This document shows positions 10,769 through 29,726 of a DNA stretch of 41,983 bases, piece after piece (the stretch's first letter is position 1; every line of letters begins with the position of its first letter). The notes under the pieces were generated by a model. The model had not been told where the DNA came from. It saw nothing but the letters and a program-made list of their open reading frames with translations, and did not search any database. Source of the DNA: Dyella sp. ASV24 (lineage in GTDB: Bacteria; Pseudomonadota; Gammaproteobacteria; Xanthomonadales; Rhodanobacteraceae); contig NZ_JAELTQ010000027.1 in the NCBI RefSeq assembly GCF_016428905.1, positions 1 through 41,983 of the forward strand, in the 5' to 3' direction. A program made the position numbers and the translations under genes.

Positions 10769-10972
10769 TGGGGGCGGTGTGGGGTGTTGCGTTACGCGAG
10801 GTTTTCCCTCTCCCCTATGGGGAGAGGATTGGGTGAGGGGGCAATCTAGCCTCACTGTTTGTGTCGTCACCCCGGCGCACCCCGCAAAAGGGGGCAAGGG
10901 CCGGGGTCCAGAGCCTCGGTATTTGGTTTTAGCGTTGCGGCGACCTGGCCGCCTGCGCGGCGGGCGTTTCGA

Positions 10973-11021
10973 CCTTCTGCCGAAGGCCGAGTCACTTTTC
11001 TTTGCTTGCCCAAAGAAAAGT
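10973..11021. repeat. Tandem covarying hairpins, left end of copy A
   Basis: Two adjacent stem-loops: CCTTC-TGCC-GAAGG (10973-10986) and ACTTTTCTTTG-6-CAAAGAAAAGT (10994-11021). The equivalent hairpins in copy B (29536-29584) have arms CCTCC/GGAGG and ACTTTCTCTTG/CAAGAGAAAGT. Both arms differ, yet pairing is perfect in each copy. Confidence 0.85.
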
Positions 11022-11340
11022 AACCCAAAGAAAGGGCCCCCCGGATGAGTCGCCTTCCGGGCTCCGCCCTCCAGGTACGCGGTCGGGTTCCGGGCTTTTC
11101 GACGGGGCTCCTGCCCCGACGAAAAGGAATCGGCATCCATGCCGATTCCCCTGCGGGCCTTCTCTCCACCCGCCCGCCGCCTCATACGGGGCCCAGTAGA
11201 TCAAAAGCACAGAGCTGACGGCTCGTGCAGCGAAGCTGCACATCGCATCGCGGCAGTCGCGTTGCTCCTGCTCTAAGCGCATAAAGCCAAGGCAGAAGAG
11301 AAAGGCGACGCTGCTAGGTGTCGAGTTCTCCCCTGCGGTC

Positions 11341-11467
11341 GGGAAGCGTAGCGTTTGCTTTCCCTTGCCCCAGGGATGGGAAAGCGTAGCGCTCCCTTTA
11401 CCTCGCCTCGGCGGTAGGAAAGCGTAGCGTCCCCTTTGCCTAGCTCCAGGGGTAGGGAAGCGTAGCG
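11341..11467. repeat. Four-copy ~38-base tandem repeat inside copy A
   Basis: The core GGGAAGCGTAGCG (or GGAAAGCGTAGCG) starts at 11341, 11378, 11417 and 11455, a period of 37-39 bases with variable spacers. Copy B has two units on the other strand (29165-29177 and 29203-29215, period 38), so unit number varies between copies. Confidence 0.85.
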
Positions 11468-11628
11468 CGGCCTGCTTTAAGTCCTCGCCGCCATGGCGCG
11501 TTGCGAAGCGCTCCGGTGTACCCGCTGTGTAGAGGCGAAGGTGACCAAGCCACACGATTCCTCAGGCGTTCGGGCTTATCCCATCGTGATGCTACGGGCG
11601 TTGGCCTTACGGCCATTTTCTTTGGGTT

Positions 11629-11678
11629 ACTTTTCTTTTGGGCCAGCAAAAGAAAAGTGACTCGAGCGTCGGCAGACG
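11629..11678. repeat. Tandem covarying hairpins, right end of copy A
   Basis: ACTTTTCTTTTG-6-CAAAAGAAAAGT (11629-11658, 12-bp perfect arms) followed by CGTC-GGCA-GACG (11667-11678). These are the inverted counterparts of the hairpins at 10973-11021, so the two ends of the element mirror each other. Confidence 0.82.
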
Positions 11679-11979
11679 ATCGAAACGCCCGCTGCGTAAG
11701 CGGCCAGGTCGCGACAACGCTCGAAGCGACAGCCGACCATTGACGAAACTGGATCCCGGCCTGCGCCGGGATGACGGCTAAAGATGAAGCCATGCGGCGA
11801 GCACCCACCCCTCACCCCAACCCTCTCCCCAAAAGGGGAGAGAACGCCGCCCTCACTCAGCGGTCGCCCGCAACCCCCCACCCCCGAACAGCAATGACTT
11901 CTGGCGTATGAAACCAGCCGCCATCGATGCCTAAGCTGCAACATCGCGCCCCCTGCGCTCATCCCGAGGCTTTACCTTC

Positions 11980-13584
11980 ATGCGCAAGCTCCCCCTCGCC
12001 CTGGCATTGGCCACGCTGCTGCTCGGCACTTCAGTGCACGCCGCCGACAAGCCCGAGAAGAACGACAAGCCCGAGGACAAGCCAGATGCCGCGCTACTCA
12101 AGCCGCAGTCGTCGGAGACGTCGGGCACGGTAAAGGTGGAAGGCAAGAGCATCGACTACAAGGCCGTGGCGGGCACGCTGGTGCTGCACGGCAGCGGCGA
12201 CAAGGAGAGCGAGCCGCAGATCAGCATGTTCTACACCGCGTACTTCAAGAAAGGCGTGGAGCCGGGCAAGCGACCGATCACGTTTATTTACAACGGTGGT
12301 CCTGGTTCGGCCACGGTGTGGTTGCACATGGGTGCGTTTGGTCCCAAGCGTGTGGTGACGAGCGATGACTCGCACACGCCGGCTGCACCCTACGGTCTGG
12401 TGAACAACGATTACAGCCTGCTTGATGCTTCGGATCTCGTGTTCATCGACGCCCCGGGGGCGGGTTTTAGCCGTCTGATCGCGGATGATGCCGATAAGGG
12501 CAAGCGCGAGGAGCAAATGAAGGATCGCAAGAAGACGGTCTACAGCGTCGATGGCGACGGTCATGCCTTTGCGCAGTTCATCACGCAGTTCCTGTCCAAG
12601 TACAACCGTTGGAATTCGCCCAAGTATCTGTTTGGCGAAAGCTACGGCACCACGCGTTCTGCAGTGGTGGCCAACATTCTGGAGAACGAGGACAGTGTTG
12701 ATCTCAATGGCGTGATCCTGCTGTCGCAGATCCTCAACTTCGACACCAGCATCGACGGCCCTGCCAACAATCCGGGCGTGGACTTGCCGTACGTGGTGGG
12801 CCTGCCTACGTTTGCCGCCACGGCCTACTACCACCACAAGCTGCCGCAGCAACCGGCGGATCAGGAGTCTTTCCTGCGCGAAGTGGAGCAGTACGCCATT
12901 GGCGAGTACGCCTCGGCGTTGATGCAGGGTTCTCGCCTGGATGATGCGCGCAAGCAGGCCGTGGCGCAGAAGCTGCACCAGTACACCGGTCTTCCGGTGG
13001 CTTATCTGTTGAAGGCGAACCTGCGTGTTGACGGCGGTATGTTCGAGCATGAGTTGCAGGCGGATGGCGATATCACCACCGGCCGTCTGGATACGCGCTT
13101 CTCGGGGCCCTCGCTCGATCCGTTGAGCAAATCGTCGGAGTACGACCCGCAGTCGTCGGCGATCAGCTCCGCTTACGTCGCCGCGTTTAATGACTATGTA
13201 CGTCGGCAGCTGAAGTTTGGCGAGGGGCAGACGTATCGTCTGTTTGCGGATATCGATCACTGGGACTTCGCGCATAAGGCGCCGGGTTCAACCGAGGCGT
13301 TGCAGCAGTCGACCAACGTGATGCCGGATCTGGCCACGGCGATGAAGACAAACCCGGGGCTGCGGGTCTCGCTCAACGGCGGTTACTACGATCTCGCCAC
13401 GCCGTACTTTGCGGCCGATTACGAGATGCACCACATGCCGATCCCGGCAAGCCTGGAGAAGAACATCTCCTACGCGTGGTATCCGTCGGGCCACATGGTG
13501 TATGCCCACGAGGATTCACTGAAGAAGCTGCATGACAATGTGGCGCGCTTCATTGAAGACACCGATAACGTCGGCAAGCATTGA
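11980..13584 (+). CDS. S10 family serine peptidase (carboxypeptidase-like), exported
   Basis: Secreted or periplasmic peptidase of 534 residues, predicted to trim peptides from the C-terminus. A signal peptide ends near AHA/ADK (about residue 21). The alpha/beta-hydrolase core carries the oxyanion-hole motif NGGPGSAT, the nucleophile Ser221 in FGESYGTTR, Asp471 in GGYYDLATPY and His505 in YPSGHMVY, so the catalytic triad is complete. The length is typical of bacterial S10 relatives. ATG 11980 is followed directly by a good signal sequence, with GAGG in the leader. It lies just after repeat A. A strong hairpin follows 8 bases after the stop. Confidence 0.93.
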   Translation: MRKLPLALALATLLLGTSVHAADKPEKNDKPEDKPDAALLKPQSSETSGTVKVEGKSIDYKAVAGTLVLHGSGDKESEPQISMFYTAYFKKGVEPGKRPITFIYNGGPGSATVWLHMGAFGPKRVVTSDDSHTPAAPYGLVNNDYSLLDASDLVFIDAPGAGFSRLIADDADKGKREEQMKDRKKTVYSVDGDGHAFAQFITQFLSKYNRWNSPKYLFGESYGTTRSAVVANILENEDSVDLNGVILLSQILNFDTSIDGPANNPGVDLPYVVGLPTFAATAYYHHKLPQQPADQESFLREVEQYAIGEYASALMQGSRLDDARKQAVAQKLHQYTGLPVAYLLKANLRVDGGMFEHELQADGDITTGRLDTRFSGPSLDPLSKSSEYDPQSSAISSAYVAAFNDYVRRQLKFGEGQTYRLFADIDHWDFAHKAPGSTEALQQSTNVMPDLATAMKTNPGLRVSLNGGYYDLATPYFAADYEMHHMPIPASLEKNISYAWYPSGHMVYAHEDSLKKLHDNVARFIEDTDNVGKH

Positions 13585-13592
13585 CGATAGCG

Positions 13593-13624
13593 GTGAAGGT
13601 GCACCGGTGGCGGTGCACCTTCAC
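13593..13624 (+). terminator. Perfect 14-bp hairpin after the S10 peptidase gene
   Basis: GTGAAGGTGCACCG (13593-13606), loop GTGG, then the exact reverse complement (13611-13624). No T-run follows, so it could be a Rho-assisted end, an mRNA-stabilising structure or a regulator site for the SnoaL-like gene that starts 57 bases later. The hairpin is certain; the role is inferred. Confidence 0.5.
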
Positions 13625-13680
13625 ACCTGCGTGCCGCGGCCAGCGCTACGCTCGCGAACCTCGCCAGCTGGAGGTTCCGT

Positions 13681-14055
13681 ATGAGCACCGAAGCCGTCGC
13701 CAAACGCCTGGTGGCCATGTGCCGCCACGGCCAGTTCGAAGAAGCGCAGCACGAGTTGTACGCCAAGGATGCCGAGAGCATCGAACCCGCGTCCATGGCC
13801 AATGGGCCCATGGGTAACGTGAAGGGCCTCGACGCGATCCTGGAGAAGGGCAAGCGTTTTCAGGCCAATGTGACGCAGATGCATGGCCTTGAGGTCACCG
13901 AGCCGCTGATCGCCGGTAACTGGTTCAGTGTCGTCATGACTATGGACGTGACGATGAAGGAATACGGTCGCGTGACCATGACAGAGATCTGCGTCTATCA
14001 CGTCAAGGACGACAAGATCGTCAGCGAACAGTTTTTCTACGATACGGGTGGTTAG
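13681..14055 (+). CDS. SnoaL-like / NTF2-fold small protein
   Basis: Cytoplasmic protein of 124 residues with the pattern of the SnoaL-like NTF2 fold: an N-terminal helix (MCRHGQFEEAQHELYAKDA), a conserved turn, then strands with WFSVVMTMDVTM and a final strand YHVKDDKIVSEQFFY. Proteins of this fold range from isomerases to ligand-binding proteins, so no reaction is assigned. The start is supported by GGAGG 6 bases before ATG 13681. It is convergent with rpoD, whose terminator lies between them. Confidence 0.82.
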   Translation: MSTEAVAKRLVAMCRHGQFEEAQHELYAKDAESIEPASMANGPMGNVKGLDAILEKGKRFQANVTQMHGLEVTEPLIAGNWFSVVMTMDVTMKEYGRVTMTEICVYHVKDDKIVSEQFFYDTGG

Positions 14056-14102
14056 TCTCAGCAGGGCCGTGCAGGAATGCAGTTGTCTGCAACGGATCGC
14101 CA

Positions 14103-14131
14103 CAAACAAAAAGCCCCGCTTTCGCGGGGCT
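14103..14131 (-). terminator. Rho-independent terminator of rpoD
   Basis: On the minus strand, AGCCCCGC-GAAA-GCGGGGCT (stem 14112-14131) is followed by TTTTTGTTT (14103-14111). It lies 27 bases beyond the rpoD stop codon and is a classic intrinsic terminator for that gene. Confidence 0.92.
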
Positions 14132-14157
14132 CAATGCAACTTGCACCAGCGTAGTGC

Positions 14158-16020
<1,863 letters not shown>

Positions 16021-16049
16021 ACCTACCGCCGCGTATGCAGGAACCGATC

Positions 16050-16078
16050 AGTATACCTATGTGATGCTTTTTTGACCA
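16050..16078 (-). promoter_or_regulatory. Candidate sigma-70 promoter for rpoD
   Basis: On the minus strand, TGGTCA (16078-16073) and TATACT (16055-16050) are separated by 17 bases, with an A-rich spacer. The -10 matches consensus at five of six positions. The ATG lies about 30 bases downstream. Confidence 0.5.
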
Positions 16079-16185
16079 GTTTTCAAGGAAGACCAGGAGG
16101 ATGGCCGACACGCAAAAATCGCGCCAAATCGGCATCTTCCAGTGATTTTGTGGAACAGAGTCCGGGCACGCCGAGGGGTGGGCGC

Positions 16186-16626
16186 TCATGGGGTCTCCAG
16201 CCAGAAGGTGACCGGGCCGTCATTGACCAGATGCACCTGCATATGGGCACCGAAGCGCCCGATTTCCACCCTGGGATGCGCTGCTCGGGCCAAATCGACG
16301 AGTCGATCGAACCAGCGGCGGCCTTCTTCCGGCGTCGCTGCACTGGTAAAGCTGGGGCGCATGCCGGAGCGGGTGTCCGCCGCCAGGGTGAACTGGCTGA
16401 CCAGCAGCAGCTCACCGCCGGTATCGGCCAGGGAGCGGTTCATGCGGCCTTGCTCGTCGGCAAACACGCGGTAGCCGAGCAGGCGCTCCAGCATGCGCTT
16501 GGTGCGCGCCTCGTCGTCGCCCGGCTGCACGGCGACCAGCGCCAGCAGGCCAGGCCCGATGGCACCCACGGTGGTGTTTTCGACATCGACACGAGCGGAC
16601 AGTACGCGCTGGATCAGGGCGATCAT
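16186..16626 (-). CDS. dtd: D-aminoacyl-tRNA deacylase
   Basis: Hydrolyses D-amino acids (and glycine mischarged on tRNA-Ala) from tRNA, a proofreading step. The 146-residue protein has the usual family length and both signature motifs: SQFTLAAD (residues 77-84) and the Gly-cis-Pro motif NDGPVTF (135-141), with GRMNRSL between the domains. ATG 16626 starts the conserved MIALIQRV strand. It shares the minus strand with rpoD but ends 165 bases upstream of it, and it is divergent from the acyltransferase gene. Confidence 0.96.
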
Positions 16627-16769
16627 CGATTCGCTAACGGCAGGAGGGGGCGAAAGATTAGGGCTATGGCCGGTCGCGGCGATAGCCTCAGGTGCGGGAA
16701 ACGAAAACAGGCGGCTTGTCGTTGACCCGTGAACCCGCTGCCGGAGCGGTTAGTTACACTGCGTCGCTC

Positions 16770-17651
16770 ATGCGATTCGATATCTATCTCCTCTACCTCC
16801 TCCTGCGCCTGTTCGGCATGCTGCCCTTGCGCACGCTGCACGCGATCGGCGCCGGCATCGGCCGTCTCTCGCTGGCGATGCGCAGCGGTACTGCGCACAC
16901 GACCTCGATCAACCTGAAGCTGGTGCGGCCAACGCTGGACGATCGGGCGCACGCGGCCCTGCTCCGTCAGGTGATGGAAGACAGCGGCCGTTCCGCCACC
17001 GAGATCGCCAAGATCTGGGGCAACGACGCCGAGCGTGCGCTGGACATGGTGCGCGAGGTGCGCGGCGAGGCTCTGTTCGATGCCGCGTTGGCTTCCGGTA
17101 AAGGCGTGATCATCGCTGCGCCCCACCTGGGTTGCTGGGAGTTGCTCAACTACTGGCTATGCCGCAAGACGTCGATGGCCATCCTGTATCGCCCGCCGCG
17201 TATCGCCGCGATCGAAGGCCTGCTGCGCAAAGTGCGCGGTGCACTGGCGCCCGAGCAGGTCCGTGCCGAGGGTGCCGGCGTGCGCACGCTTTACAAGCGG
17301 CTGGCGGCGGGGGGCACGGTGGGCATCCTGCCGGATCAGAAGCCACGCGCCGGCGAGGGTGAGGTTGCCCCGTTCTTCGGACAGAACGCCCTGACCATGG
17401 TGCTGCTGCCCCGTCTGGCGGCACGCACGGGGGCGACGGTGCTGTTCGCGTTTGCCGAACGCTTGCCTCGAGGCGAGGGTTACCGCATCCATCTGATGCC
17501 TGCGCCCGAGGGGCTGGCCGATACGGATCTGTCCGTGGCCTGCCGGGCGCTCAACCAGGGTGTAGAGCGCTGCGTCGAGCTGGCCTTTTCGCAGTACCAG
17601 TGGCACTACAAGCGTTATTCATCGGATACGTGGCGTAGCCCCTACGATTGA
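16770..17651 (+). CDS. LpxL/HtrB family lipid A acyltransferase
   Basis: Inner-membrane enzyme of 293 residues that transfers a fatty acyl chain from acyl-ACP to the lipid A precursor. It has one N-terminal membrane segment (YLLYLLLRLFGMLPL), the catalytic H-x4-E motif HLGCWE (His119, Glu124), and the downstream DQKPRAGEG motif conserved in this family. ATG 16770 opens the family-type N-terminus; the frame is open from 16692, but the extra residues resemble nothing and overlap the dtd promoter side. Which secondary acylation it performs is not determined. It fits with the glycan genes further right. Confidence 0.92.
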   Translation: MRFDIYLLYLLLRLFGMLPLRTLHAIGAGIGRLSLAMRSGTAHTTSINLKLVRPTLDDRAHAALLRQVMEDSGRSATEIAKIWGNDAERALDMVREVRGEALFDAALASGKGVIIAAPHLGCWELLNYWLCRKTSMAILYRPPRIAAIEGLLRKVRGALAPEQVRAEGAGVRTLYKRLAAGGTVGILPDQKPRAGEGEVAPFFGQNALTMVLLPRLAARTGATVLFAFAERLPRGEGYRIHLMPAPEGLADTDLSVACRALNQGVERCVELAFSQYQWHYKRYSSDTWRSPYD

Positions 17652-17705
17652 TCTTCCGGCGCGCGCGCGTTCCATCTTTCGGACGTCACTACGATAGGGA
17701 TCATC

Positions 17706-18299
17706 ATGCGACTGCTGCTTTTCGTCTTGCTTGCGCTCTGGCTGCCATTGGCGGCAGCCCAGGACCAACCCCCTGCGTTGACCGACTGGCAAGCGCACTG
17801 CACGTTGCCGGGCGGCCAGGCATTCGGGTTGCGTTTCCACACCGATAGCCCGGACCCCACCAACGACGACATGCAGGTGATGCTGGTCCTTGCTGGCGGC
17901 AAGCAGGTCAAGCTTGGGCTGCCACCGGCCTGGTATCTACCGGTGACCTTGACCGGCAACGCCGACAATCGATGCGACAGCATCGTGGCCACGCCAGCCG
18001 GTGATGGACGGATCTTGCTGTGGCTGGCCACGGACGATCGCCCGAACTTTCCGCAACTGACGCTGGCGCTGGTCGACCTGAAGAGCGGTCAGCTGGTGGC
18101 GAAGCGCACCACGCTGGGTGCGATCAAGATCAGCGATGAAAATGTGCATCTGGCTATTCGCCACCACGACACGGGCTACGAAGTGCGCGTGGTGCACGAT
18201 GTGCTGACCAACACCCATGACGACACCGCGTACAACTACATCGAAGACTGGTTGCAGGTCGGCGTTGGCACGCAGACCATCGATACTCGCTGGCGCTAA
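17706..18299 (+). CDS. Hypothetical exported protein
   Basis: The 197-residue product has a clear signal peptide (MRLLLFVLLALWLPLAAAQ, cleavage about residue 18-19), so it is probably periplasmic. It has two cysteines in the mature part (LTDWQAHCTLPGG and NADNRCDSIVA) that could form a disulfide. Alternating hydrophobic strands suggest a beta-rich fold. I do not recognise a family. GGGA lies about 6 bases before ATG 17706. It follows the acyltransferase by 54 bases on the same strand and may be cotranscribed; a link to envelope assembly is only positional. Confidence 0.72.
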   Translation: MRLLLFVLLALWLPLAAAQDQPPALTDWQAHCTLPGGQAFGLRFHTDSPDPTNDDMQVMLVLAGGKQVKLGLPPAWYLPVTLTGNADNRCDSIVATPAGDGRILLWLATDDRPNFPQLTLALVDLKSGQLVAKRTTLGAIKISDENVHLAIRHHDTGYEVRVVHDVLTNTHDDTAYNYIEDWLQVGVGTQTIDTRWR

Positions 18300-18318
18300 C
18301 GCCCTGCCCCCTGGGCGT
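18299..18318. terminator. Possible bidirectional hairpin between convergent genes
   Basis: ACGCCC (18299-18304) and GGGCGT (18313-18318) can pair across an 8-base C-rich loop. It lies exactly between the convergent stop codons of the exported protein and the TPR gene. There is no T-run; weak support. Confidence 0.3.
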
Positions 18319-20341: not shown

Positions 20342-20431
20342 GGGCAGTCTTCTTGATGGGATTGAGACGGATTCTATCCCGAGCCACGCCTGCTCAACGC
20401 TGACCCGGCCGCCACCGGGGGCGCTGGCGCC

Positions 20432-21466: not shown

Positions 21467-22278
21467 CGATCAATGCCGTGGCGGATCAGGGCGTCCGCAC
21501 CGTGTTGTACAGAGGCGGGATTCCGCCGCATTTCGTAGTAGCGCATGCGCTTGTAGGCAGCGTAGGAGGCGGAGGTTTCCGCGATCACAAAGCCGCGCCA
21601 CCCGTCCAGAAAACCCAGCCGCAGGACATAGTCCTTGATGAAGGCCAGCAGATACACGAAAGGTGTCTGCCACATGCGCACTGGCTTGCCCTTCTCCAGC
21701 CAATCCCGACACTTCAGTTCGGCGTAGCGCAGCACCTTGATCTGCTTCTGGGGCAAGCTGGGGTTGTTCTCGTGGTTGAAGGCCGCCTTCAGTGTCACGG
21801 AGGGGCCGTCGAAGCGCAGTGATTCGTGTACCCGCACGTCTGCCCAGCGCGCGCGGTCACGGTGGAACAGGCGGGCCATCTTTTCGCCCATCGCGGGCAG
21901 GTACCAGCGCATCGGGGCGCCCATGAAGATCGTGGCGCGACGCAGGTAGGCGGCGCAGATGTTGCTGGCCATCAGTGCGGCCAGGCGACCCTGCAGCTCG
22001 GCGGCCAGTTCGGGCGAAAGGTACTCATCGGCGTCCAGCGCCAGGATCCAGTCATGGCTGCACTGCGTCGTGGCGAAGTTGCGCTGCGCCCCGAAACCCA
22101 GCCAGTCCTGATGCACCACTCGTGCGCCGTGCGCCTGCGCGATGGCCACCGTGTCGTCGGTGCTGCCGCTGTCGATCACGAGCTTTTCGGCCGCGAACGG
22201 CACGCTGTCGAGGCAGCGCGCGATGCTGTTGGCTTCGTTGTAGGTGATGACGACCAGGGTGAGCGGGAAGGTTTGCAT
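21463..22278 (-). CDS. GT2 family glycosyltransferase, WaaE/KdtX-like
   Basis: Cytoplasmic-side glycosyltransferase of 271 residues with a GT-A fold: LVVITYNEANSIARCLDSV at the N-terminus, IDSGSTDDT in the nucleotide-binding strand, and the metal-binding LALDADEYLS (DxD-type). The sequence order (GFGAQRNFA, RLFHRDRARW, VHESLRF) is that of WaaE/KdtX-type lipopolysaccharide inner-core enzymes, which add glucose to heptose in enteric bacteria. The sugar used here is not established. It is the first gene of the minus-strand operon. Confidence 0.9.
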   Translation of the reverse strand: MQTFPLTLVVITYNEANSIARCLDSVPFAAEKLVIDSGSTDDTVAIAQAHGARVVHQDWLGFGAQRNFATTQCSHDWILALDADEYLSPELAAELQGRLAALMASNICAAYLRRATIFMGAPMRWYLPAMGEKMARLFHRDRARWADVRVHESLRFDGPSVTLKAAFNHENNPSLPQKQIKVLRYAELKCRDWLEKGKPVRMWQTPFVYLLAFIKDYVLRLGFLDGWRGFVIAETSASYAAYKRMRYYEMRRNPASVQHGADALIRHGIDR

Positions 22279-22493
22279 CCCGCCATTCTAGTGGGTGCGG
22301 CTCAGGCGTGGCGCGACGGGGGAGGCCTCCGTAACGCTAAACGAGAGCCCGTTTCGGTAAGATGCCGCTGCTGCGCACGGCACGGGGCCGTGGGCAACAC
22401 CTTTCTGGGACGCTTTCCCCGGCGTTCCCGGAAGGTGAAAAAGTCTGACCCGCTGGATGTGCATGGCACACCGGCGATCTGCTGGAGGGCAGC

Positions 22494-23399
22494 ATGGCAG
22501 GGCAAGGCAATCTCATACTCGGCATGGCCACCGGCTATGCCGCCAAGGACCTGCGTCCCTTCGTACAGAGCCTGGCGATGAGCGGCTTTCAGGGCCGCCT
22601 GGGGCTGTTTATCTATCGCGGACAGGTCGATTCGATCCGGGCCATGGCACAGCAGCATGCGCCGGCGTTGGATCTTGACCTGGTCGTCGTCGATGGCATT
22701 CGCCGTTACGCCCGGTTCTGGCGATCGTGCTTCAAGCGCCTGTTCGCGATGCTGCCTGCGGAGATGTCGCCGGCACTCAAGCGCAGCATGCTGCGCTTCC
22801 AGGGCATGCCGCACGTGACCCGGCACTTCCACTATGACGACTACCTGCGTGCGAACCCCGGGTTCGACCAAGTGATGCTCACCGACGTGCGCGACGTGGT
22901 GTTCCAGGCGGAACCCTTCGCTCAGTTCGAGGGCGGACTGTGCGTGGGCATGGAAAGCGACGCCCTGACCCTCGCCACCGAGACGTACGATCGCGAGTGG
23001 ATCCTCGGTGCGTATGGCGAAGCCATGTTGCAACAGATTGGCGACCGGCAGATTTCCTGCGCCGGCGTGGTGATCGCTGATGCGCAGGCGATGCGCGAGT
23101 ACATCGACAAGATGCTGCTGGAAATCATGCGGCTGCCGTTCCGCATCACCAAGAACCGCAATTACGATCAGGCGCACCACAACAAAATGCTGTATTGCCA
23201 CGACCTCAAGGCCGCCACCACCTGGTGCCAGCCGTTGAGCTCGCAGATCGCCACGGTGGGTGTGATGAATCCGTCGGTGTTCCAGCTCACCGCGGATGGC
23301 GTGCTGCTCAACGAGGATGGTCAGGTGGCGCCCATCGTGCACCAGTACGACCGCCACCCTGCCCTGGTCGAAGCCTTTGCGGGCAGGTTCTCTCGCTGA
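22494..23399 (+). CDS. Unknown protein, possible GT-A-type glycosyltransferase
   Basis: A 301-residue soluble protein that I cannot place in a named family. Its N-terminus (LILGMATGYAAKDLRPFVQS) looks like the first strand-helix of a Rossmann-like sugar-nucleotide fold, and MLTDVRDVVFQ (Asp131, Asp134) resembles the metal-binding motif of nucleotide-diphospho-sugar transferases. A run NRNYDQAHHNKMLYC follows the central domain. The start is secure: GGAGG 6 bases before ATG 22494. It stands alone on the plus strand between minus-strand genes of a glycan locus, which supports, but does not prove, a role in surface sugar transfer. Confidence 0.75.
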   Translation: MAGQGNLILGMATGYAAKDLRPFVQSLAMSGFQGRLGLFIYRGQVDSIRAMAQQHAPALDLDLVVVDGIRRYARFWRSCFKRLFAMLPAEMSPALKRSMLRFQGMPHVTRHFHYDDYLRANPGFDQVMLTDVRDVVFQAEPFAQFEGGLCVGMESDALTLATETYDREWILGAYGEAMLQQIGDRQISCAGVVIADAQAMREYIDKMLLEIMRLPFRITKNRNYDQAHHNKMLYCHDLKAATTWCQPLSSQIATVGVMNPSVFQLTADGVLLNEDGQVAPIVHQYDRHPALVEAFAGRFSR

Positions 23400-23456
23400 G
23401 GCGGTGTCGTCCGGTCTTGCGATCTGGCGTGACCACCGCCTGTGCGCCGCAGCGGC

Positions 23457-24431
23457 TCAATAACTCCGCTGCTGATGCCAGCGCCAGGCCGAGGCGATGA
23501 TGGTGTCGATGTCCGAGTGCTCGGGTTGCCAGCCAAGCAGGTCGCGCGCTTTTGCGTTGGAGGCGACCAGCACAGGCGGATCGCCAGCGCGGCGGCCCAG
23601 GATGTCACGGGGAATGCTGCGGCCCGTGACCTTTTCCGCGGCGTGGATGATTTCCTGCACGCTGAAGCCGTGCTCGCTGCCCAGGTTGAAGATGTGCGCA
23701 CCCTCGTTCTCGTCGAGGAATGCAAGAGCCTTGATGTGCGCTGACGCAAGATCATCGACATGGACATAGTCGCGCACGCAGGTACCGTCGGGCGTCGGGT
23801 AGTTGGTGCCAAACACCTTCAGCCCGTCGCCCTGCCCCAGCGCGGTGCGCAGCACATTGGGGATCAAATGCGACTCGGGCTCGTGCGCTTCGCCGATATC
23901 GCCGTTGGCGTCCGCGCCCGCCGCGTTGAAATAGCGGAACGTTACCGAGCGCAAGCCATACGCGTGTGCAGCGTCGGCAAGCATTTGCTCCACCATGCGT
24001 TTGCTGGCGCCGTAAGGCGAGATGGGTTCGGTCGGGTGGCTTTCGTCGAGCAAGGGTGTGCGCGGCACACCGTAGACGGCCGCTGTCGAGGAAAACACGA
24101 TGCGCGACACGCCGGCCGTCTGCATCGCTTCCAGCAGATTGAGCGTGCCCGCGACGTTCACCTGATAGTACGCGTAGGGTTTGATCGTCGATTCGGCGAC
24201 CAGCGAGAGCGAACACAGATGCAGCACGGCGTCGAAACGGCCGTCGGAAAATACGTCGGCCAAGGCGGCTGGGTCGGTCACATCACCCACGATGAGCGGC
24301 GCACCCTGCACGGCCGCGCGGTGCCCGGTGGACAGATTGTCGAAAACAACCGGTTCGTGTCCGCGCCGGAGCAGCTGCCGCACCATGTGCGAGCCGATAT
24401 AGCCCGCGCCGCCACACACCAGAACCCTCAT
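23457..24431 (-). CDS. galE: UDP-glucose 4-epimerase
   Basis: Interconverts UDP-glucose and UDP-galactose (possibly the N-acetyl forms), supplying sugars for the neighbouring transferases. The 324-residue extended short-chain dehydrogenase has the NAD-binding GGAGYIGS (7-14), DNLSTGH after the second strand, catalytic FSSTAAVYG (about 113-121) and YGASK (Tyr140, Lys144), RYFNAAGAD, and VRDYVHVDD. The usual FAA in the third strand reads HLCSLSLVAEST, a mild departure. It is divergent from the GT2-ligase operon across 228 bases. Confidence 0.93.
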   Translation of the reverse strand: MRVLVCGGAGYIGSHMVRQLLRRGHEPVVFDNLSTGHRAAVQGAPLIVGDVTDPAALADVFSDGRFDAVLHLCSLSLVAESTIKPYAYYQVNVAGTLNLLEAMQTAGVSRIVFSSTAAVYGVPRTPLLDESHPTEPISPYGASKRMVEQMLADAAHAYGLRSVTFRYFNAAGADANGDIGEAHEPESHLIPNVLRTALGQGDGLKVFGTNYPTPDGTCVRDYVHVDDLASAHIKALAFLDENEGAHIFNLGSEHGFSVQEIIHAAEKVTGRSIPRDILGRRAGDPPVLVASNAKARDLLGWQPEHSDIDTIIASAWRWHQQRSY

Positions 24432-24459
24432 GTCTTGCTCCGTCTACTCTCCGCGCGAG

Positions 24460-24490
24460 ATCATAGACGCTGTACTCACGTTCGCGTGAG
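24460..24490 (-). promoter_or_regulatory. Candidate galE promoter element with overlapping palindrome
   Basis: On the minus strand, TATGAT (24465-24460) could be a -10. A perfect 6-bp palindrome CTCACG-TTCG-CGTGAG (24475-24490) covers the place where the -35 would be, with no good -35 sequence. This suggests an operator or activator site, but it could also be an RNA hairpin. Confidence 0.3.
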
Positions 24491-24592
24491 CCGGGGCGGC
24501 AACCTTATAAAACGTATTTCACGACCTGGGCGGCTTCCGGAGCCGTCTTTTACCTGAACGCAGGTCAAGAATTGGGCAGATCAGCCCTGTTT

Positions 24593-24620
24593 TTGCGCCT
24601 CGTTCGGGCGATCGTATACA
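24593..24620 (+). promoter_or_regulatory. Candidate promoter of the GT2-ligase-GT2-GT4 operon
   Basis: TTGCGC (24593-24598), 16 bases, TATACA (24615-24620), about 40 bases before the first ATG of the operon. The -10 is good and the -35 weak. Confidence 0.35.
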
Positions 24621-24659
24621 GCCGGCCCCGCGGCGGCGTGCGGGACGGGTCCAAATTTA

Positions 24660-25562
24660 ATGCCAGAGAAGTATATGTCCCAGCCTAGCGTTTCCTTGAT
24701 GGTCTCCACCTACAACTGGAAGGAGGCGCTGGCGTTGGTGTTGGGTAGCGTGATCGGGCAAACCCGGCTCCCCGACGAGGTGATCGTGACCGATGACGGT
24801 TCACGACCGGATACGGCGGACCTGATGCATCGGATCGCCAAGGATTTTCCTGTGCCGCTGCGCCACATATGGCAGCCCGACGAGGGATTCCGCCTGGCGC
24901 GCAGCCGCAACTGCGGTATCGCCGCCGCTTCCAGTGACTATTTGATCCAGGTCGATGGGGACATGATCCTGCATCGTCATTTCGTGGCTGACCATCTCGC
25001 GTTGGCGCGGCCGGGCAGTTTTCTGCAGGGCACGCGCATCCGCACGACGGATGCCGAAACCGCGCGCCTGTTGGCGGGTGGCAAACCGCGCTTTGGCTGG
25101 TTCGTGAACGCCTACTTTCGCGAGGAAGGCGATCGCAGCACCTACCATTTCGGGCGTCGGCACCACACCCTGCGCCTGCCTTGGCTGGCCCGTATCAAGG
25201 CGCGCTCCGGTGGCCACCCCATGGGTTGCAACGTGAGCTACTGGCGCGAGGATGTGTTGCGCGTGAATGGCTACGACGAGCGGATGCAGGGCTACGGGAG
25301 TGAAGACCTGGAGATCGACATCCGCCTGCGCAATGCCGGCCTGCGTCGCCGCCAGGTCAAGTTTGCCGCGCTCGCACTACACCTGGAGCACCGCAGCGTG
25401 GCGCCGCCCGACCCCAGCGATCCTGACCTGCCCAACAACAAGTTGCTGTATGCCAGCCGGGAAGCTCGGTTGATTCGTACCGAGTACGGTGTGGATGCCC
25501 ACCTGGCCAGCTTCACGGAGCCGCCGCAGGATCTGCGCAAGCTGGCGGTGGCTGCGGAATGA
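24660..25562 (+). CDS. GT2 family glycosyltransferase (first paralog)
   Basis: GT-A glycosyltransferase of 300 residues that probably adds a sugar to the lipopolysaccharide core or O-chain. Motifs: LMVSTYNWKEALALVL, VTDDGSRPDTA, GFRLARSRNCGIAAASSDYL, IQVDGDMILHRHF (DxD), and YGSEDLEIDIRLRNAG in the C-terminal acceptor region typical of chondroitin-synthase-like GT2 domains. ATG 24660 is used; ATG 24675, preceded by GAG 6 bases away, is an alternative. The stop overlaps the ligase start (ATGA). It is clearly paralogous to the GT2 at 26776-27615. Confidence 0.9.
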   Translation: MPEKYMSQPSVSLMVSTYNWKEALALVLGSVIGQTRLPDEVIVTDDGSRPDTADLMHRIAKDFPVPLRHIWQPDEGFRLARSRNCGIAAASSDYLIQVDGDMILHRHFVADHLALARPGSFLQGTRIRTTDAETARLLAGGKPRFGWFVNAYFREEGDRSTYHFGRRHHTLRLPWLARIKARSGGHPMGCNVSYWREDVLRVNGYDERMQGYGSEDLEIDIRLRNAGLRRRQVKFAALALHLEHRSVAPPDPSDPDLPNNKLLYASREARLIRTEYGVDAHLASFTEPPQDLRKLAVAAE

Positions 25563-26779
25563 GGCCGGTGGAACACAAGCAGGACTCCTACCTCGCAAGC
25601 GAATCCATTGACGCGCATCCGGTGCCGAGGTGGCTCAAGACGTGGGTCACCGTGGGCATGGTGTGGCTGATCATCGGCATGGCCGTACTGCCTGCCGGCA
25701 TGTCCTACAGCCCGGGCAAGGTCTTCCAGTACGGACTTGGGCTCACGCTCTTTCTGCCGACGCTGGTCCTGCTGATAAGCCGGCCCGGCCGCTTCCTGGT
25801 GTTCTGGCGCCAGCCGATGGTGCCTTGGGTGCTATTGCTCATGGTCTGGGGCTGCGTGTCCCTGACCTGGAGTCACGCCACGCGTCCATTTGATGAGGCT
25901 GGCCACAACGTCAGCATCCTGTTCTTCTTGTTTGCGTGGCAGCAATGCATCGGCAGTGACGAGGAGCGATGCAAACGTCTGCTCGTGGGCTGTGGTCTGG
26001 CCATGGCGGTCATCGCCCTTGGCGCGATCATCGCAGACCAACCCAGTCCCGATCTGGATGGCAGGCTGGTCGGATTCGGTGCGATGTCCAACGCAAACCT
26101 CGCGGCGGGCGGCATGGGCGCGGCGCTGATGTGGTTGTGGCCATGGCGTCTACAACATACGGCCTGGCGCGTGCTCAAGTGGCTGGCGATCGCGACGCTT
26201 GGGGCATTCATCGTGCTTACGCTCACGCGCAGTGCGCTGGGGGCGCTATTCATGGCATTGGTGGTGGTGGCGCTGAGCCAGGGTGGCCGCCGAGCCTGGC
26301 TATATGCTGGCCTGCTCATCGCGCTGGGTGCGGTCTGTGCAGCCATTGGAGCCCATTTCCTGATGGCGCGCGGGTGGTCAGCGCGCCCCGAGATTTTCCA
26401 GGCAGCGATGCATCTGTTCGAGCAGCATCCATGGCGCGGCATCGGCCAAGGTTCGCCATTCGAACTGCATGCCGATGGCCTGGTGTTGATGCACGCGCAT
26501 AACATGTTCAGCCAATTGGCCGTCGAGCTGGGCTTGCCGGGCCTGTTGTTGTGGGCGGGCATATGGCTTGTGTTGGGATGGCGCGCGTGGCGTCACCGGC
26601 ACGAGACGCAGGGTTTGATCGTGCTCGGCATATGGGTGTTTGGCACGGTCATGGTGCAGTTCGATCTGCCGCATCTGCTCGATAGTCCGCGCCCTGGTTG
26701 GCTTCTCACCTGGTTGCCGCTGGCGCTGGGTATGTCGTTTGGGCGCAAGGCAACCAAGAACGCGACGGATCGCTTATGA
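25559..26779 (+). CDS. O-antigen ligase family protein (WaaL-like)
   Basis: Inner-membrane protein of 406 residues with about 10-12 helices; such proteins join O-antigen from undecaprenyl diphosphate to the lipid A core in the periplasm. The Wzy_C/WaaL signature is present in the large loop: HPWRGIGQG and MHAHNMFSQLAVELGLPG (His312 and His314). Wzy polymerases share this domain, so polymerase remains possible; the flanking core-type GT2 genes favour ligase. ATG 25559 overlaps the stop of the upstream GT2 gene, and its own stop overlaps the next start. Confidence 0.87.
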   Translation: MRPVEHKQDSYLASESIDAHPVPRWLKTWVTVGMVWLIIGMAVLPAGMSYSPGKVFQYGLGLTLFLPTLVLLISRPGRFLVFWRQPMVPWVLLLMVWGCVSLTWSHATRPFDEAGHNVSILFFLFAWQQCIGSDEERCKRLLVGCGLAMAVIALGAIIADQPSPDLDGRLVGFGAMSNANLAAGGMGAALMWLWPWRLQHTAWRVLKWLAIATLGAFIVLTLTRSALGALFMALVVVALSQGGRRAWLYAGLLIALGAVCAAIGAHFLMARGWSARPEIFQAAMHLFEQHPWRGIGQGSPFELHADGLVLMHAHNMFSQLAVELGLPGLLLWAGIWLVLGWRAWRHRHETQGLIVLGIWVFGTVMVQFDLPHLLDSPRPGWLLTWLPLALGMSFGRKATKNATDRL

Positions 26780-27615
26780 ACGTCTCGCTGATCATCCTTA
26801 CCTACAACTGGCCCGGTGCCTTGGAAGGCATGTTGCGCAGCGTTGCCGCGCAAACCTGTCTGCCGTACGAGGTTGTGGTGGCGGATGACGGCTCGACGGC
26901 AGAGACCGCCGCGTTGATACAGCGCATGGCGGCTACGTATCCCGTGCCGTTGCGCCACGTCTGGCAGGAAGACCATGGCTTCCGCGCCGCGCGTGCGCGC
27001 AATCGCGGTATCGCAGCGAGCCGCGGTGACTATGTGATCCTGCTCGATGGTGACATGCTGGTGCATCCGGATTTCATCGCGGATCACCTCATGCTCGCCG
27101 AGCGTGGGTTCTTCCTGCAAGGCGGCCGTATCAAGGCGACGCCCGAGGAATCGCAGCGACTGTTGAACGGCGGGGGACCTGTCTTTGCCCCGTGGTCCAC
27201 CGCCAACTTCGATGAATTCGACGGCACGCGCCGGCTCTATGCGTTCCGCGCCCCCCTGTTGGCGTGCTGGAAGGCGCGTTCGCGCAACGGTGGTCGCGTG
27301 ATGAGCTGCAATATGAGCTTCTGGCGCGACGACTTGCTGCGCGTGAACGGCTTCGACGAGCGCATGGAAGGATATGGCGCCGAGGACCGCGAGCTGGCAG
27401 CACGACTGGAGAACGCCGGCCTGAAGCGTCGTCCACTCAAATGGGCCGCGCTCGCCGTGCACCTGTGGCACAACTCACGCTCGCCGCCGGACGTGGATGA
27501 TATGAGTCTGCCGAACAATCGCCTGTTCCACGCTACGCGTACGCAAGGCATCACCTGGTGCGAGCGCGGCATCAACCAGCACGTCGATCTGCTCGACGAC
27601 GCCCACGCTGCATGA
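26776..27615 (+). CDS. GT2 family glycosyltransferase (second paralog)
   Basis: The 279-residue protein has the same design as the GT2 at 24660: LIILTYNWPGALEGML, VADDGSTAETAAL, PVPLRHVWQEDHGFRAARARN, ILLDGDMLVHPDF, and YGAEDRELAARLENAG. The close match in motif order and wording shows a duplication now flanking the ligase. ATG 26776 overlaps the ligase stop (ATGA); the frame is open upstream, but that part lies within the ligase gene. It probably adds a related sugar or uses a related acceptor. Confidence 0.91.
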   Translation: MNVSLIILTYNWPGALEGMLRSVAAQTCLPYEVVVADDGSTAETAALIQRMAATYPVPLRHVWQEDHGFRAARARNRGIAASRGDYVILLDGDMLVHPDFIADHLMLAERGFFLQGGRIKATPEESQRLLNGGGPVFAPWSTANFDEFDGTRRLYAFRAPLLACWKARSRNGGRVMSCNMSFWRDDLLRVNGFDERMEGYGAEDRELAARLENAGLKRRPLKWAALAVHLWHNSRSPPDVDDMSLPNNRLFHATRTQGITWCERGINQHVDLLDDAHAA

Positions 27616-28727
27616 AGCTGCTCTACACCAATTTCCATGGCGGCGACGGCGGGGGCCACACCACGTACATCCGCGAGTTGGCGGCCGCCTTGGCGTCGCG
27701 TCACGAGGTACACGTGGCGGCGCCACCTGGCAGTCGTCTCAATCGCGAGGCACACGCCTTGCCCGGCGTGTTCGTGTTGGATCAGCCGTTTCCCAACGGT
27801 TTGAACAAATGGAAGGCGAGGCGTCGTGCGCGTGCGCAGCTCGCCGCCTATCTGCGGCAGCAGAACTTCGACATCGTTCACGTCAACGGCTCCGCCGATC
27901 ACCGTCTGGTGCTGTCGGCGATGCCGGCGAAACGTCCCGCGCTGGTTTGGACCAAGCACAACTCCAAACCCGTTCGCGGTATCGGCAACGCACTACGCGC
28001 GCGGCGCACGGACTTGGTCATTGCCGTATGCGAGTACACACGCCGGGAGTTGCTGCACACCGCCTATCGTCACTGCCGGGTGGAAACGGTCTACAACGGT
28101 GTAGACATCGAGCGCTGGTCGCCATGGCCCGAAGAGGCAGCGAAAGCGGAGCGTGCCCGCTGGAACGGCGGTGATGACAGCGTGTTCCTGCTGGGCAGCA
28201 ACGCGGGAACCGCCAGCTACAAAGGCTGGATGGACCTGATGGAAGCGCTGCCCTTGCTTCCCGCCGATGTACGCGGCCGTGTGCGCGTACTCATCGCTGG
28301 TGTGCCGCCGAAAGCGGAGGAACTGGAGCGCGTGGCGCAACTCGGTCTTGCCGGGCAGGTGGTGTTTCCCGGTGTGTTGGCCGACGCGCGTGGGATGGTG
28401 GCGTCACTCGACGCGGGCTTTGTGCTCTCGTACGACGTGGAGACTATTTCGTTTGCATGCCGCGAAATGATGGCGATGGGCAAGCCTGTGTTGCTGACGA
28501 ACTATGCCGGGCTTCCTGAGAATATCGATGAAGGGAAGGATGGGTGGTTAGTGCCGGTGAGGAATCCGGTGGCCATTGCCGCTGCGGTCCAGCGTTTGGT
28601 TGAGCAGCGGGATGCACTGTCGGCGATGGGTGTTGTGGCACGGGTGCATGCTGAGCGGGAGTTTGGGTTGCCGTTGTTCGTGGGGCGGACGGAAGAGGTT
28701 TATGAGCGGCTTTTGGGGTTGAGGTAG
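27612..28727 (+). CDS. GT4 family glycosyltransferase (GT-B fold)
   Basis: Glycosyltransferase of 371 residues. The N-terminal Rossmann domain starts MKLLYTNFHGGDGGGHTTYIREL, a typical glycine-rich acceptor loop. The C-terminal domain has VYNGVDIERW, LLGSNAGTASYKGWMDLMEAL, VVFPGVLAD and the donor-site segment FACREMMAMGKPVLLTN, consistent with the E-x7-E region of GT4. ATG 27612 overlaps the preceding stop (ATGA), making it the fourth coupled gene of the operon. The last roughly 150 bases are G+T-rich, and repeat copy B begins 30 bases after the stop. Confidence 0.91.
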   Translation: MKLLYTNFHGGDGGGHTTYIRELAAALASRHEVHVAAPPGSRLNREAHALPGVFVLDQPFPNGLNKWKARRRARAQLAAYLRQQNFDIVHVNGSADHRLVLSAMPAKRPALVWTKHNSKPVRGIGNALRARRTDLVIAVCEYTRRELLHTAYRHCRVETVYNGVDIERWSPWPEEAAKAERARWNGGDDSVFLLGSNAGTASYKGWMDLMEALPLLPADVRGRVRVLIAGVPPKAEELERVAQLGLAGQVVFPGVLADARGMVASLDAGFVLSYDVETISFACREMMAMGKPVLLTNYAGLPENIDEGKDGWLVPVRNPVAIAAAVQRLVEQRDALSAMGVVARVHAEREFGLPLFVGRTEEVYERLLGLR

Positions 28728-28953
28728 CCGATCGGTTGGTTGGCCTGATGTTGCAATGGCGCTGTTGTAGCCAGCCTTTGACCTTTGCTCCCTCTCCCCT
28801 TTGGGGAGAGGGTTGAGGTGAGGGGTCAATCTAGCCTCACTGTTTCATCTTTAGCCGTCACCCCGGCGTAGGCCGGGGTCCAGGTTCCGTAGTAGTCGGT
28901 TGTCGCCTCATGCCTTATCGCGACCTGGCCGCTTACGCAGCGGGCGTTTCGAT

Positions 28954-29003
28954 CGTCTGCCGACGCTCGAGTCACTTTTCTTTTGCTGGCCCAAAAGAAA
29001 AGT
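28954..29003. repeat. Tandem covarying hairpins, left end of copy B
   Basis: CGTC-TGCC-GACG (28954-28965) and ACTTTTCTTTTG-CTGGCC-CAAAAGAAAAGT (28974-29003, 12-bp perfect arms). Confidence 0.85.
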
Positions 29004-29535
29004 AACCCAAAGAAAATGGCCGTAAGGCCAACGCCGGCAGCATTTCGATGGGATAAGCCCGAACGGCTGAGGAATCGTGTGGCTTGGCAACCTTCGCCTC
29101 TACACAGCGGGTACGCGGAAGCGCTTCGCAACGCGCCATGGCGAAGAGGACTTAAAGCAGGCTTCGCTACGCTTCCCTATCGCTGGGGTTAGGGAGAGAG
29201 GACGCTACGCTTCCCAACCGCTAGGGAAAGCTCGACACCTAACGGCATCGCTTTTCTCTTCTGCCTTGGCTTTATGCGCTTAGAGCAGGAGCAACGCGAC
29301 CTGCCGCGATGCGATGTGCAGCAACGCTGCACGAGCCGTCTGCTTACAGCTTTTGATCTTCCGGCCCCCGTATGAGGCGGCGGGCGGGTGGAGATAAGGC
29401 CCGCAGGGGAATCGGCAGGGATGCCGATTCCTTTTCGTCGGGGCAGGAGCCCCGTCGAAAAGCCCGGAACCCGACCGCGTACCTGGAGGGCGAAGCCCGC
29501 AAGGCGCCGATTCCGGGGTGCCCTTCTCTTTGGTT

Positions 29536-29584
29536 ACTTTCTCTTGGGCAAGCAAGAGAAAGTGACCCGGCCTCCGGCAGGAGG
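29536..29584. repeat. Tandem covarying hairpins, right end of copy B
   Basis: ACTTTCTCTTG-GGCAAG-CAAGAGAAAGT (29536-29563, 11-bp perfect arms) and CCTCC-GGCA-GGAGG (29571-29584). Compared with copy A, both arms are changed in step. Confidence 0.85.
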
Positions 29585-29726
29585 TCGGAACGCCCGCTGC
29601 GTAAGCGGCCAGATCGCGATCACGCGATAACCAAGCGATACCGCTACTGGACCCCGGCCCTTGCCCCTTTTGCGGGGTGCGCCGGGGTGACGGCTGAAGA
29701 TGAAACCGTGAAGTGAGATTGCCCCC

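What the first reader, a model, noticed from the sequence alone, without database searches (positions are those of the whole stretch)
10973..29584. Paired compensatory changes keep repeat hairpins intact
The long hairpin has arms ACTTTTCTTTTG/CAAAAGAAAAGT (11629-11658, 28974-29003), ACTTTTCTTTG/CAAAGAAAAGT (10994-11021) and ACTTTCTCTTG/CAAGAGAAAGT (29536-29563). The adjacent short hairpin has CCTTC/GAAGG, CCTCC/GGAGG or CGTC/GACG, always with a TGCC/GGCA loop. The outer palindrome is TCCCGGC/GCCGGGA (11754-11771) or CCCCGGC/GCCGGGG (28861-28878). Both arms change together in each case. That is the signature of selection on pairing, in RNA or extruded DNA, or of arm-to-arm correction.
Basis: seen in the sequence. 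Interest (0 to 1): 0.8.

Follow-up and report, generated by a model that had tools for sequence, protein, structure and literature searches.

The report
Triple-stranded RNA knot in bacterial repeats
The repeated hairpins in this Dyella genome belong to a widespread family of intergenic repeats, and the longest one carries the sequence signature of an RNA pseudoknot with a third strand lying in its groove, next to hairpins of the kind that bind the regulator CsrA.

Summary
In detail: paired changes keep every named stem intact, far beyond chance, in the own genome, 17 named Dyella species or strains and a few relatives.

The long "hairpin" (M1) reads as an H-type pseudoknot. Its loop pairs with a segment upstream, and this covaries. 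The pyrimidine tract between them matches the stem's purine strand in parallel, T over A and C over G, in every cell of 7 of 8 columns of 39 sequences. Outside Dyella, 38 of 48 asymmetric modules match in parallel only and none antiparallel only. That is a triple-helix signature, which plain hairpins or arm-to-arm correction do not produce.

A model built from Dyella and close relatives finds the module in 76 of 398 sampled genomes (23 weak ones in one family are doubtful) and in 55 of 87 loci holding Rfam TwoAYGGAY RNA, which Rfam puts in the CsrB clan. Dyella copies carry NGGA-loop hairpins beside it.

Best reading: an RNA module, inserted as outward-facing pairs, probably binding CsrA. The fold is strongly supported, the CsrA role inferred, transcription in Dyella untested.

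The parts
10805..11836 (.). Copy A of the ~1.03 kb element: two outward-facing half-units around a core, CTCTCCCC/GGGGAGAG palindromes outermost
   Evidence: relatives G001 and G012 have 50 and 9 nt between the conserved flanks there
10967..11038 (-). Copy A left end: pseudoknot/triplex module (M1) plus short hairpin M2
   Evidence: R1 92.8 bits
11096..11125 (-). Copy A hairpin with AGGA tetraloop on the outward (minus) strand
   Evidence: sequence; class counted
11126..11149 (-). Copy A hairpin with TGGA tetraloop (AYGGAY context) on the outward strand
   Evidence: sequence
11611..11685 (+). Copy A right end: pseudoknot/triplex module plus M2 (11662-11683)
   Evidence: R1 68.5 bits; hairpin arms 11629-11658
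11749..11776 (-). CGTC-type REP palindrome (TCCCGGC/GCCGGGA), CGTC tag outermost
   Evidence: features as in PMC3733652
28789..29730 (.). Copy B of the element, opposite orientation; orthologous copies in G002 and G006
28856..28883 (+). CGTC-type REP palindrome (CCCCGGC/GCCGGGG)
28947..29021 (-). Copy B left end: pseudoknot/triplex module plus M2
   Evidence: R1 68.5 bits
29408..29431 (+). Copy B hairpin with GGGA tetraloop
   Evidence: sequence
29432..29461 (+). Copy B hairpin with AGGA tetraloop
   Evidence: sequence
29519..29590 (+). Copy B right end: S1 29519-29522 with 29547-29550, third strand 29524-29531 (TTCTCTTT), S2 29533-29546 with 29553-29566, M2 29567-29588
   Evidence: R1 97.9 bits; columns as counted
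41712..41983 (.). Copy C, cut by the contig end
41870..41944 (-). Copy C pseudoknot/triplex module plus M2
   Evidence: R1 68.5 bits

Best explanation
The paired changes come from selection on an RNA fold. Each end of the element, read outward, carries: (i) in one or both halves, two hairpins with NGGA tetraloops; (ii) an H-type pseudoknot in which the loop of the long hairpin pairs with a segment upstream (S1) and the pyrimidine tract between them lies in the major groove of the hairpin stem (S2), parallel to its purine strand, making about 7-9 U.A-U and C+.G-C triples; (iii) a short hairpin (M2). The module sits in intergenic elements of roughly 1 kb inserted between genes as two outward-facing half-units, bounded by CGTC-type palindromes. 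Shown: covariation of S1, S2, M2 and the third strand, strand-specific NGGA loops, homology to the same module beside TwoAYGGAY RNAs, and presence/absence at orthologous sites. Inferred: the NGGA hairpins bind CsrA/RsmA dimers; the triple helix blocks exonucleases or otherwise stabilises the RNA, so that read-through or dedicated transcripts act as CsrA decoys or as CsrA-controlled 3' ends.
For: S1: 97.4% of cells paired, column 3-30 CG 22/GC 16/UA 1, column 4-29 CG 33/UA 6; 54 of 62 distinct Dyella-family pairs have a Watson-Crick run of at least 4, mean 4.35 against shuffled 3.5. Third strand: columns 6-12 with 36-42 match T.A or C.G in every cell of 39 sequences, 34 of 39 at the eighth; sliding by one column gives 48-82%. 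In fixed register nine purine-tract types each carry their own matching third strand. Outside Dyella, over all full-length model matches at E<=1e-3 and except L409: of 48 asymmetric tracts 38 parallel only, 0 antiparallel only, 4 both, 6 neither. The model R1, built only from Dyella and close relatives, hits 55 of 87 TwoAYGGAY loci at E<1e-3, best 2e-20, plus Aeromonas 6e-18, Pseudoalteromonas 7e-18, Ilyobacter 3e-10. TwoAYGGAY and CsrB share Rfam clan CL00106; TwoAYGGAY was predicted to bind CsrA (PMC4333381, passages). NGGA loops: 58 of 63 own and 85 of 137 other four-base-loop hairpins beside M1; inward-strand NGGA 0 and 3. Own genome has two CsrA-family genes. One locus (L426) overlaps Rfam Bp1_684 at 59.2 bits on the same strand; PMC3521395 lists that sRNA as RT-PCR validated (passages).
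Against: No transcript data for Dyella. Rfam recognises no Dyella copy as TwoAYGGAY. 55 of 89 own and 98 of 162 other upstream segments carry no NGGA hairpin; in copies A and B of the window only one half has the pair. 32 of 87 TwoAYGGAY loci gave no R1 match. The S1 test on TwoAYGGAY loci is weaker (31 of 51 at 4 or more), and there free-register Hoogsteen beat Watson-Crick in only 11 of 22 asymmetric cases, with 4 ties and 7 against. In the fixed-register test at tract length 8 the observed 63 of 96 is not above the best of 2,000 shuffles (64; mean 49.1), partly because 4 of 12 distinct pairs are degenerate copies; at length 9 it is (76 of 81, best shuffle 74). R1 contains the third-strand letters as plain sequence, so its best hits lean towards Dyella-like tracts. 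Ten of 118 own copies have the b strand interrupted. G.T against C.A intermediates gave no consistent strand signal. A triple helix was inferred from covariation, never observed.
Confidence: 0.72

Rival explanations
1. DNA-level selection: the hairpins are single-stranded DNA recognition sites of a transposition or recombination system (REP/REPIN-like), and the mirror repeat forms an intramolecular DNA triplex.
For: Element ends are CGTC-type palindromes. Insertions with empty sites in relatives. M2 keeps one internal mismatch, as E. coli REPs need for TnpA_REP (PMC8266576, passages). Compensatory changes are reported in REPINs (PMC3116915, passages).
Against: NGGA loops lie almost only on the outward strand. 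The pseudoknot pairing S1 is not needed for a duplex-DNA triplex. The one Y1 transposase gene of the genome is not flanked by element modules. Outside Dyella M2 is often a perfect short stem (by eye, sequences; not counted).
Confidence: 0.15
2. Arm-to-arm correction (template switching in quasi-palindromes) plus cassette exchange between copies produces the paired changes without selection.
For: Both-sided changes greatly outnumber one-sided ones (73 of 74 at pair 59-66 on a tree from non-stem columns). Modules reassort among copies. Between G002 and own copy B paired changes are frequent.
Against: The retained internal mismatch; a third strand in mirror order; S1 pairing between a loop and an outside segment. 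Cassette exchange can spread variants but not create this register.
Confidence: 0.05
3. The elements are mainly terminators or mRNA 3'-end stabilisers; the CsrA-like loops are incidental.
For: Of 49 elements with both flanks readable, a crude ORF score gives 23 convergent, 23 tandem and 3 divergent. The pseudoknot module occurs in 76 of 398 genomes, TwoAYGGAY in 34 of 398. In copies A and B one half has the module without NGGA hairpins.
Against: NGGA is held while the first loop base and the stems vary, which points to sequence-specific binding. TTTT within 25 nt after the module is seen in only 7 of 118 modules, so it is not an ordinary intrinsic terminator.
Confidence: 0.3

Closest known systems
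TwoAYGGAY RNA (Rfam RF01731, clan CL00106 with CsrB)
   Same: Tandem GGA-loop hairpins beside the same pseudoknot plus M2 module; multi-copy; of 12 pairs of listed matches closer than 1 kb, 8 outward-facing, 4 tandem, 0 inward (at most 6 matches were scored per genome)
   Different: Dyella copies give no RF01731 match, are larger and REP-bounded. The pseudoknot and third strand lie outside the Rfam model and are not mentioned in the passages read
CGTC-1 REP palindromes, including neisserial dRS3 (PMC3733652)
   Same: CGTC tag, 8-bp stem with A-T first, 4-base loop, CCA tail at the outer palindrome
   Different: The second pair is T-A in only 30 of 59 own copies (C-G in 29); here they bound an element of about 1 kb rather than standing alone or as close dimers
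REPINs and RAYT transposases (PMC3116915, PMC8266576)
   Same: High-copy palindromic, inverted organisation, compensatory changes
   Different: No GTAG tag; no RAYT flanked by the modules; outward-strand NGGA loops
Bp1_684 sRNA (Rfam RF02421; RT-PCR validated in PMC3521395)
   Same: Overlaps the module on the same strand in locus L426
   Different: Only one such overlap above the cut-off among the loci scanned; function unknown
Triple-helix pseudoknots: telomerase RNA, SAM-II riboswitch, MALAT1 (recalled, no call)
   Same: Pyrimidine strand parallel to the purine strand of a stem
   Different: Different RNAs and contexts; relation by shape only
Pseudomonas fluorescens R178/R200 intergenic repeats (PMC2718517, passages)
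   Same: Multi-copy intergenic repeats of comparable size in a gammaproteobacterium
   Different: Sequences not compared; a lead only

Membership tests
TwoAYGGAY RNA (RF01731) | Score at or above the Rfam gathering cut-off (43 bits) | tested here: not met
   No match in the window; no RF01731 match at E up to 5 in L009 or in 18 loci of the own genome and relatives
TwoAYGGAY RNA (RF01731) | Two adjacent hairpins with GGA-containing loops | tested here: met
   24 of 89 own and 21 of 162 other upstream segments carry two NGGA hairpins, 10 and 43 one, 55 and 98 none
TwoAYGGAY-linked pseudoknot module (defined here) | Homology of the M1 plus M2 module | tested here: met
   R1, built from Dyella and close relatives only, hits 55 of 87 TwoAYGGAY loci at E<1e-3
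CsrA/RsmA-binding RNA (CsrB clan) | Binds CsrA | not testable with these tools
   Only loop pattern, clan membership of the relative and host csrA genes
H-type pseudoknot with triple helix | Covarying S1 and S2 and a third strand in Hoogsteen register | tested here: met
H-type pseudoknot with triple helix | Physical triple helix | not testable with these tools
   needs probing or a structure
CGTC REP | CGTC tag, 4-base loop, CCA tail, 8-bp stem | tested here: met
   Read directly at 11749-11776 and 28856-28883; the count required most of tag and tail by its search definition
CGTC REP | A-T pairs in first and second stem position | tested here: inconclusive
   First pair A-T in 58 of 59 own; second T-A 30, C-G 29; others 73 and 71 of 93
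REPIN/RAYT system | GTAG-tagged palindromes flanking a RAYT gene | tested here: not met
   One PF01797 gene, flanks share no element module; tags are CGTC

The most novel reading that the evidence does not exclude
A family of selfish, RNA-encoding intergenic elements reaching across the Pseudomonadota and into a fusobacterium. Each inserts two outward-facing copies of a CsrA-decoy RNA capped by a triple-helix pseudoknot, so that transcription from either side always ends in one sense copy. Copy number would tune the Csr/Rsm network.
Probability: 0.3. Interest if true: 0.92.

Novelty: new variant of a known kind. Interest (0 to 1): 0.82.

Why it matters
A near-perfect three-strand covariation record over many species is rare evidence for an RNA triple helix from sequence alone. 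It gives an orphan Rfam family (TwoAYGGAY) a second, more widespread domain, links a common class of intergenic repeats to CsrA-type RNAs, and makes the question of what such repeats do directly testable. If the decoy reading holds, repeat copy number would be a heritable setting of a global regulator.

Tried and rejected
RAYT mobilisation: one Y1 transposase gene found, flanks unrelated. G.T against C.A asymmetry to name the RNA strand: inconclusive. The M4 search anchored after M3 gave misaligned rows and was replaced by a flank-defined search. A column structure on the 48-sequence alignment A3 was not counted because arm lengths put the gaps out of register; A4 uses 39 of the 73 distinct modules. 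The 34 left out are mainly the longer-arm, GGCC-register class, whose S1 kinds appear. One search tested a hand-picked 55 of the model matches (35 parallel only, 0 antiparallel only, 3 both, 5 neither of 43 asymmetric); one search replaced it with all full-length matches at E<=1e-3 (3 dropped as the other strand of a listed match) and those without L409. Phages: no match; plasmid collection: 7 partial matches; E. coli: none for the 131-base query. Exact motif text in papers: nothing relevant. Other literature searches without a useful match. My first site pattern was mis-spaced. The fixed-register script parsed 289 of 352 hits; in the free-register test, 23 of 78 and 6 of 81 distinct records were dropped.
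Full report
Check of the observation. They are parts of an intergenic element of about 1 kb. Copy A is 10805-11836, copy B 28789-29730 in opposite orientation, copy C is cut by the contig end at 41712-41983. The window is one of 635 contigs of its genome; 134 sites of the shared motif lie in that genome, with 4 for a reversed control pattern, and 35 distinct two-ended elements were in the own-genome stretches that I held. One end of the element (181 bases) matched in 36 of 61 related genomes, including all 20 of the genus. At site A the relatives G001 and G012 have 50 and 9 nt between the conserved flanks where the own genome has about 1.1 kb, while G004 and G008 also carry element sequence there. 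At site B, of 12 relatives, 9 have 34-127 nt between the flanks, two (G002, G006) share the element and one (G003) aligned on one side only.

Modules. Read outward, each end carries M1 (the long hairpin), M2 (short hairpin, GGCA loop), M3 (CCGC/GCGG) and M4 (outer palindrome). M4 has features published for CGTC-1 REPs: CGTC tag, 8-bp stem with A-T first, 4-base loop, CCA tail (PMC3733652, passages); the second pair is T-A in 30 and C-G in 29 of 59 own copies.

Covariation. In 125 own and 183 other unique rows, M2 pairs 56-69, 58-67 and 59-66 each show all four Watson-Crick types in the other species. With a tree-based null written here (40 null alignments) the five best of 4,656 column pairs are M2 or M3 stem pairs; four have E<0.05 and the fifth E=0.05. 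On a tree from non-stem columns, both-sided changes are 73 of 74 at pair 59-66; these include recombination, since M2 and M3 variants occur in all four combinations. At the orthologous site-B element, own and G002 differ by paired changes in M1, M2, M3 and M4, with a one-sided change at the innermost M1 pair of G002. M2 keeps exactly one non-Watson-Crick pair in 115 of 122 own and 143 of 175 other unique rows, at pair 4 or 5 in 114 and 141 of these. Ascertainment: the named-genome pattern fixed pairs 2, 3, 6 and 9 of M2; the own-genome pattern left the 3' arm free. Of 73 distinct hairpins, 43 have one mismatch at pair 4 or 5, against a mean of 2.6 when 3' arms are shuffled. Arm-to-arm correction would not spare such a site.

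M1 is more than a hairpin. A plasmid-collection search brought in M1-like stretches from Aeromonas, Pseudoalteromonas and the fusobacterium Ilyobacter. Rfam matched TwoAYGGAY (RF01731) next to M1 in Pseudoalteromonas (51.3 bits, cut-off 43), with a sub-threshold match in Aeromonas (41.5 bits). TwoAYGGAY was then found in 34 of 398 genomes of the phylum, 27 over the cut-off. Hairpins of M1 type with the same surroundings stand downstream of many of these matches (19 of 30 loci by a loose hairpin rule that includes a few other hairpins; sequences). A covariance model built from 39 sequences of Dyella and close relatives hits 55 of the 87 TwoAYGGAY loci given to it at E<1e-3, and 76 of 398 genomes. 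18 genomes are in both lists, by my comparison of the handles printed. Twenty-three of the 76 belong to one family (f42) with weak scores, and I do not rely on them.

Pseudoknot. The M1 loop is complementary to the segment before the pyrimidine tract: TGCCC:GGGCA, TGGCC:GGCCA, TGCTC:GAGCA, GGTC:GACC, GACC:GGTC and GGCT:AGCC in Dyella and relatives, and TCGCC:GGCGA, TGTG:CACA and GCGCG:CGCGC elsewhere. In the alignment 97.4% of S1 cells pair, with C-G/G-C/U-A exchange at column 3-30. Mean Watson-Crick run: 4.35 against 3.5 shuffled (largest of 500: 3.81) in 62 Dyella-family pairs, and 3.96 against 2.75 (3.1) in 51 from TwoAYGGAY loci.

Third strand. The tract between S1 and S2 matches the purine strand of S2 in the same direction: AAAGAAAA with TTTCTTT(T), AAAAGAAAA with TTTTCTTT, AAGAGAAA with TTCTCTTT, AGAGAAAA with TCTCTTTT, AAAGAGAA with TTTCTCTT. 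It is the mirror image of the stem's pyrimidine strand, not a copy of it. In that fixed register, 63 of 96 positions match at tract length 8 (shuffled mean 49.1, best of 2,000 shuffles 64; antiparallel pairing 39) and 76 of 81 at length 9 (59.3, best 74; antiparallel 67); 4 of the 21 distinct pairs are degenerate copies. In the 39-sequence alignment columns 6-12 against 36-42 match in all cells, 5 of these 7 columns vary, and there every change is two-sided; the eighth column matches in 34 of 39. Sliding by one column drops the matches to 48-82%; one slide by two keeps 96.8% in the outer four columns because of the repeat-like sequence. Outside Dyella, over all full-length matches at E<=1e-3 and those without L409 (118 modules): 66 symmetric or G-free tracts have their third strand and 3 do not, 1 has no tract; of 48 asymmetric ones 38 match only in parallel, none only antiparallel, 4 both, 6 neither. 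The model holds the third-strand letters as sequence, so its hits lean towards such tracts, but not towards one direction. A script on the Dyella family, with one end position free, could not separate most cases: 12 parallel only, 0 antiparallel only, 56 both, 17 neither, 58 symmetric (48 present), and 28 hits without a tract. This parallel T.A/C.G rule is that of a pyrimidine triple helix, and in an H-type pseudoknot loop 1 runs parallel to that strand (recalled structural knowledge).

CsrA-type hairpins. In about 235 nt inside M1, hairpins with stem of at least 6 and a four-base loop have NGGA loops in 58 of 63 own and 85 of 137 other cases. The first loop base is T, G, A or C, and the inward strand gives 0 and 3. 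Rfam puts TwoAYGGAY in one clan with CsrB, and Gardner and Eldai predicted CsrA binding (PMC4333381, passages; the authors' names are recalled). The own genome has two CsrA-family genes. In copies A and B only one half carries these hairpins, and 55 of 89 own segments have none.

Architecture and likely working. Both Dyella half-units point outward, and of 12 close TwoAYGGAY pairs 8 are outward, 4 tandem and 0 inward. Any transcript crossing the element therefore meets an antisense half first and a sense half last. By a crude ORF score elements lie between convergent (23), tandem (23) or divergent (3) genes of 49. TTTT within 25 nt after the module occurs in 7 of 118, so it is no ordinary intrinsic terminator. 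The most likely working is a transcript whose 3' part binds CsrA and is guarded by a triple-helix pseudoknot. Binding, guarding and transcription in Dyella are inference. One relative module overlaps Bp1_684, which PMC3521395 lists as RT-PCR validated (passages).

Novelty. A full-text search for TwoAYGGAY found 7 papers, 5 listed. I read the passages holding the term in these five: none mentions a pseudoknot, a triple helix or the flanking module there. Dyella with repetitive elements gave nothing relevant. I therefore rate it a new variant of a known kind: the parts (CsrB-clan RNA, REP, triple-helix pseudoknot) are known, the combination and the triplex evidence were not found in print by these searches.

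Noticed in passing
11330-11443: Three 38-nt tandem units with GGGAAGCGTAGCG in the core of copy A; the reverse appears in copy B (29165-29226).
   Followed up: no
10800-10844: The outermost CTCTCCCC/GGGGAGAG palindrome region has 93-95% identical matches of about 42 nt in three Escherichia and one Azospirillum record, so it looks like a separate, widely spread repeat.
   Followed up: partly
own-genome loci such as L014, L022, L093, L094: An insert of about 25 nt (CGACGCGAAGCTAGTCCCCGTGGGA) splits the M1 5' arm in 10 of 118 own sites, with both arm variants; unexplained.
   Followed up: partly
L102:1450-2166: Single Y1 transposase (RAYT-like) gene with AACCTGACCCCGTT-type repeats at both sides, unrelated to this element.
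   Followed up: partly
41712-41983: The contig ends inside copy C, and many other copies in the own genome start or end at a contig end (for example C33, C57, C105, C495, C599), so these repeats probably break the assembly.
   Followed up: no
L361, L389, L418, L425, L427: The 5' arm has a G instead of T opposite an A next to the C-G pair (CTTTGCTTTG), recurring in three families while the third strand stays intact.
   Followed up: no
10865-10911 and 29646-29693: In some copies the outer palindrome carries an extra nested hairpin (CCCTTGCCCC(C)TTTTGCGGGG) in its loop.
   Followed up: no
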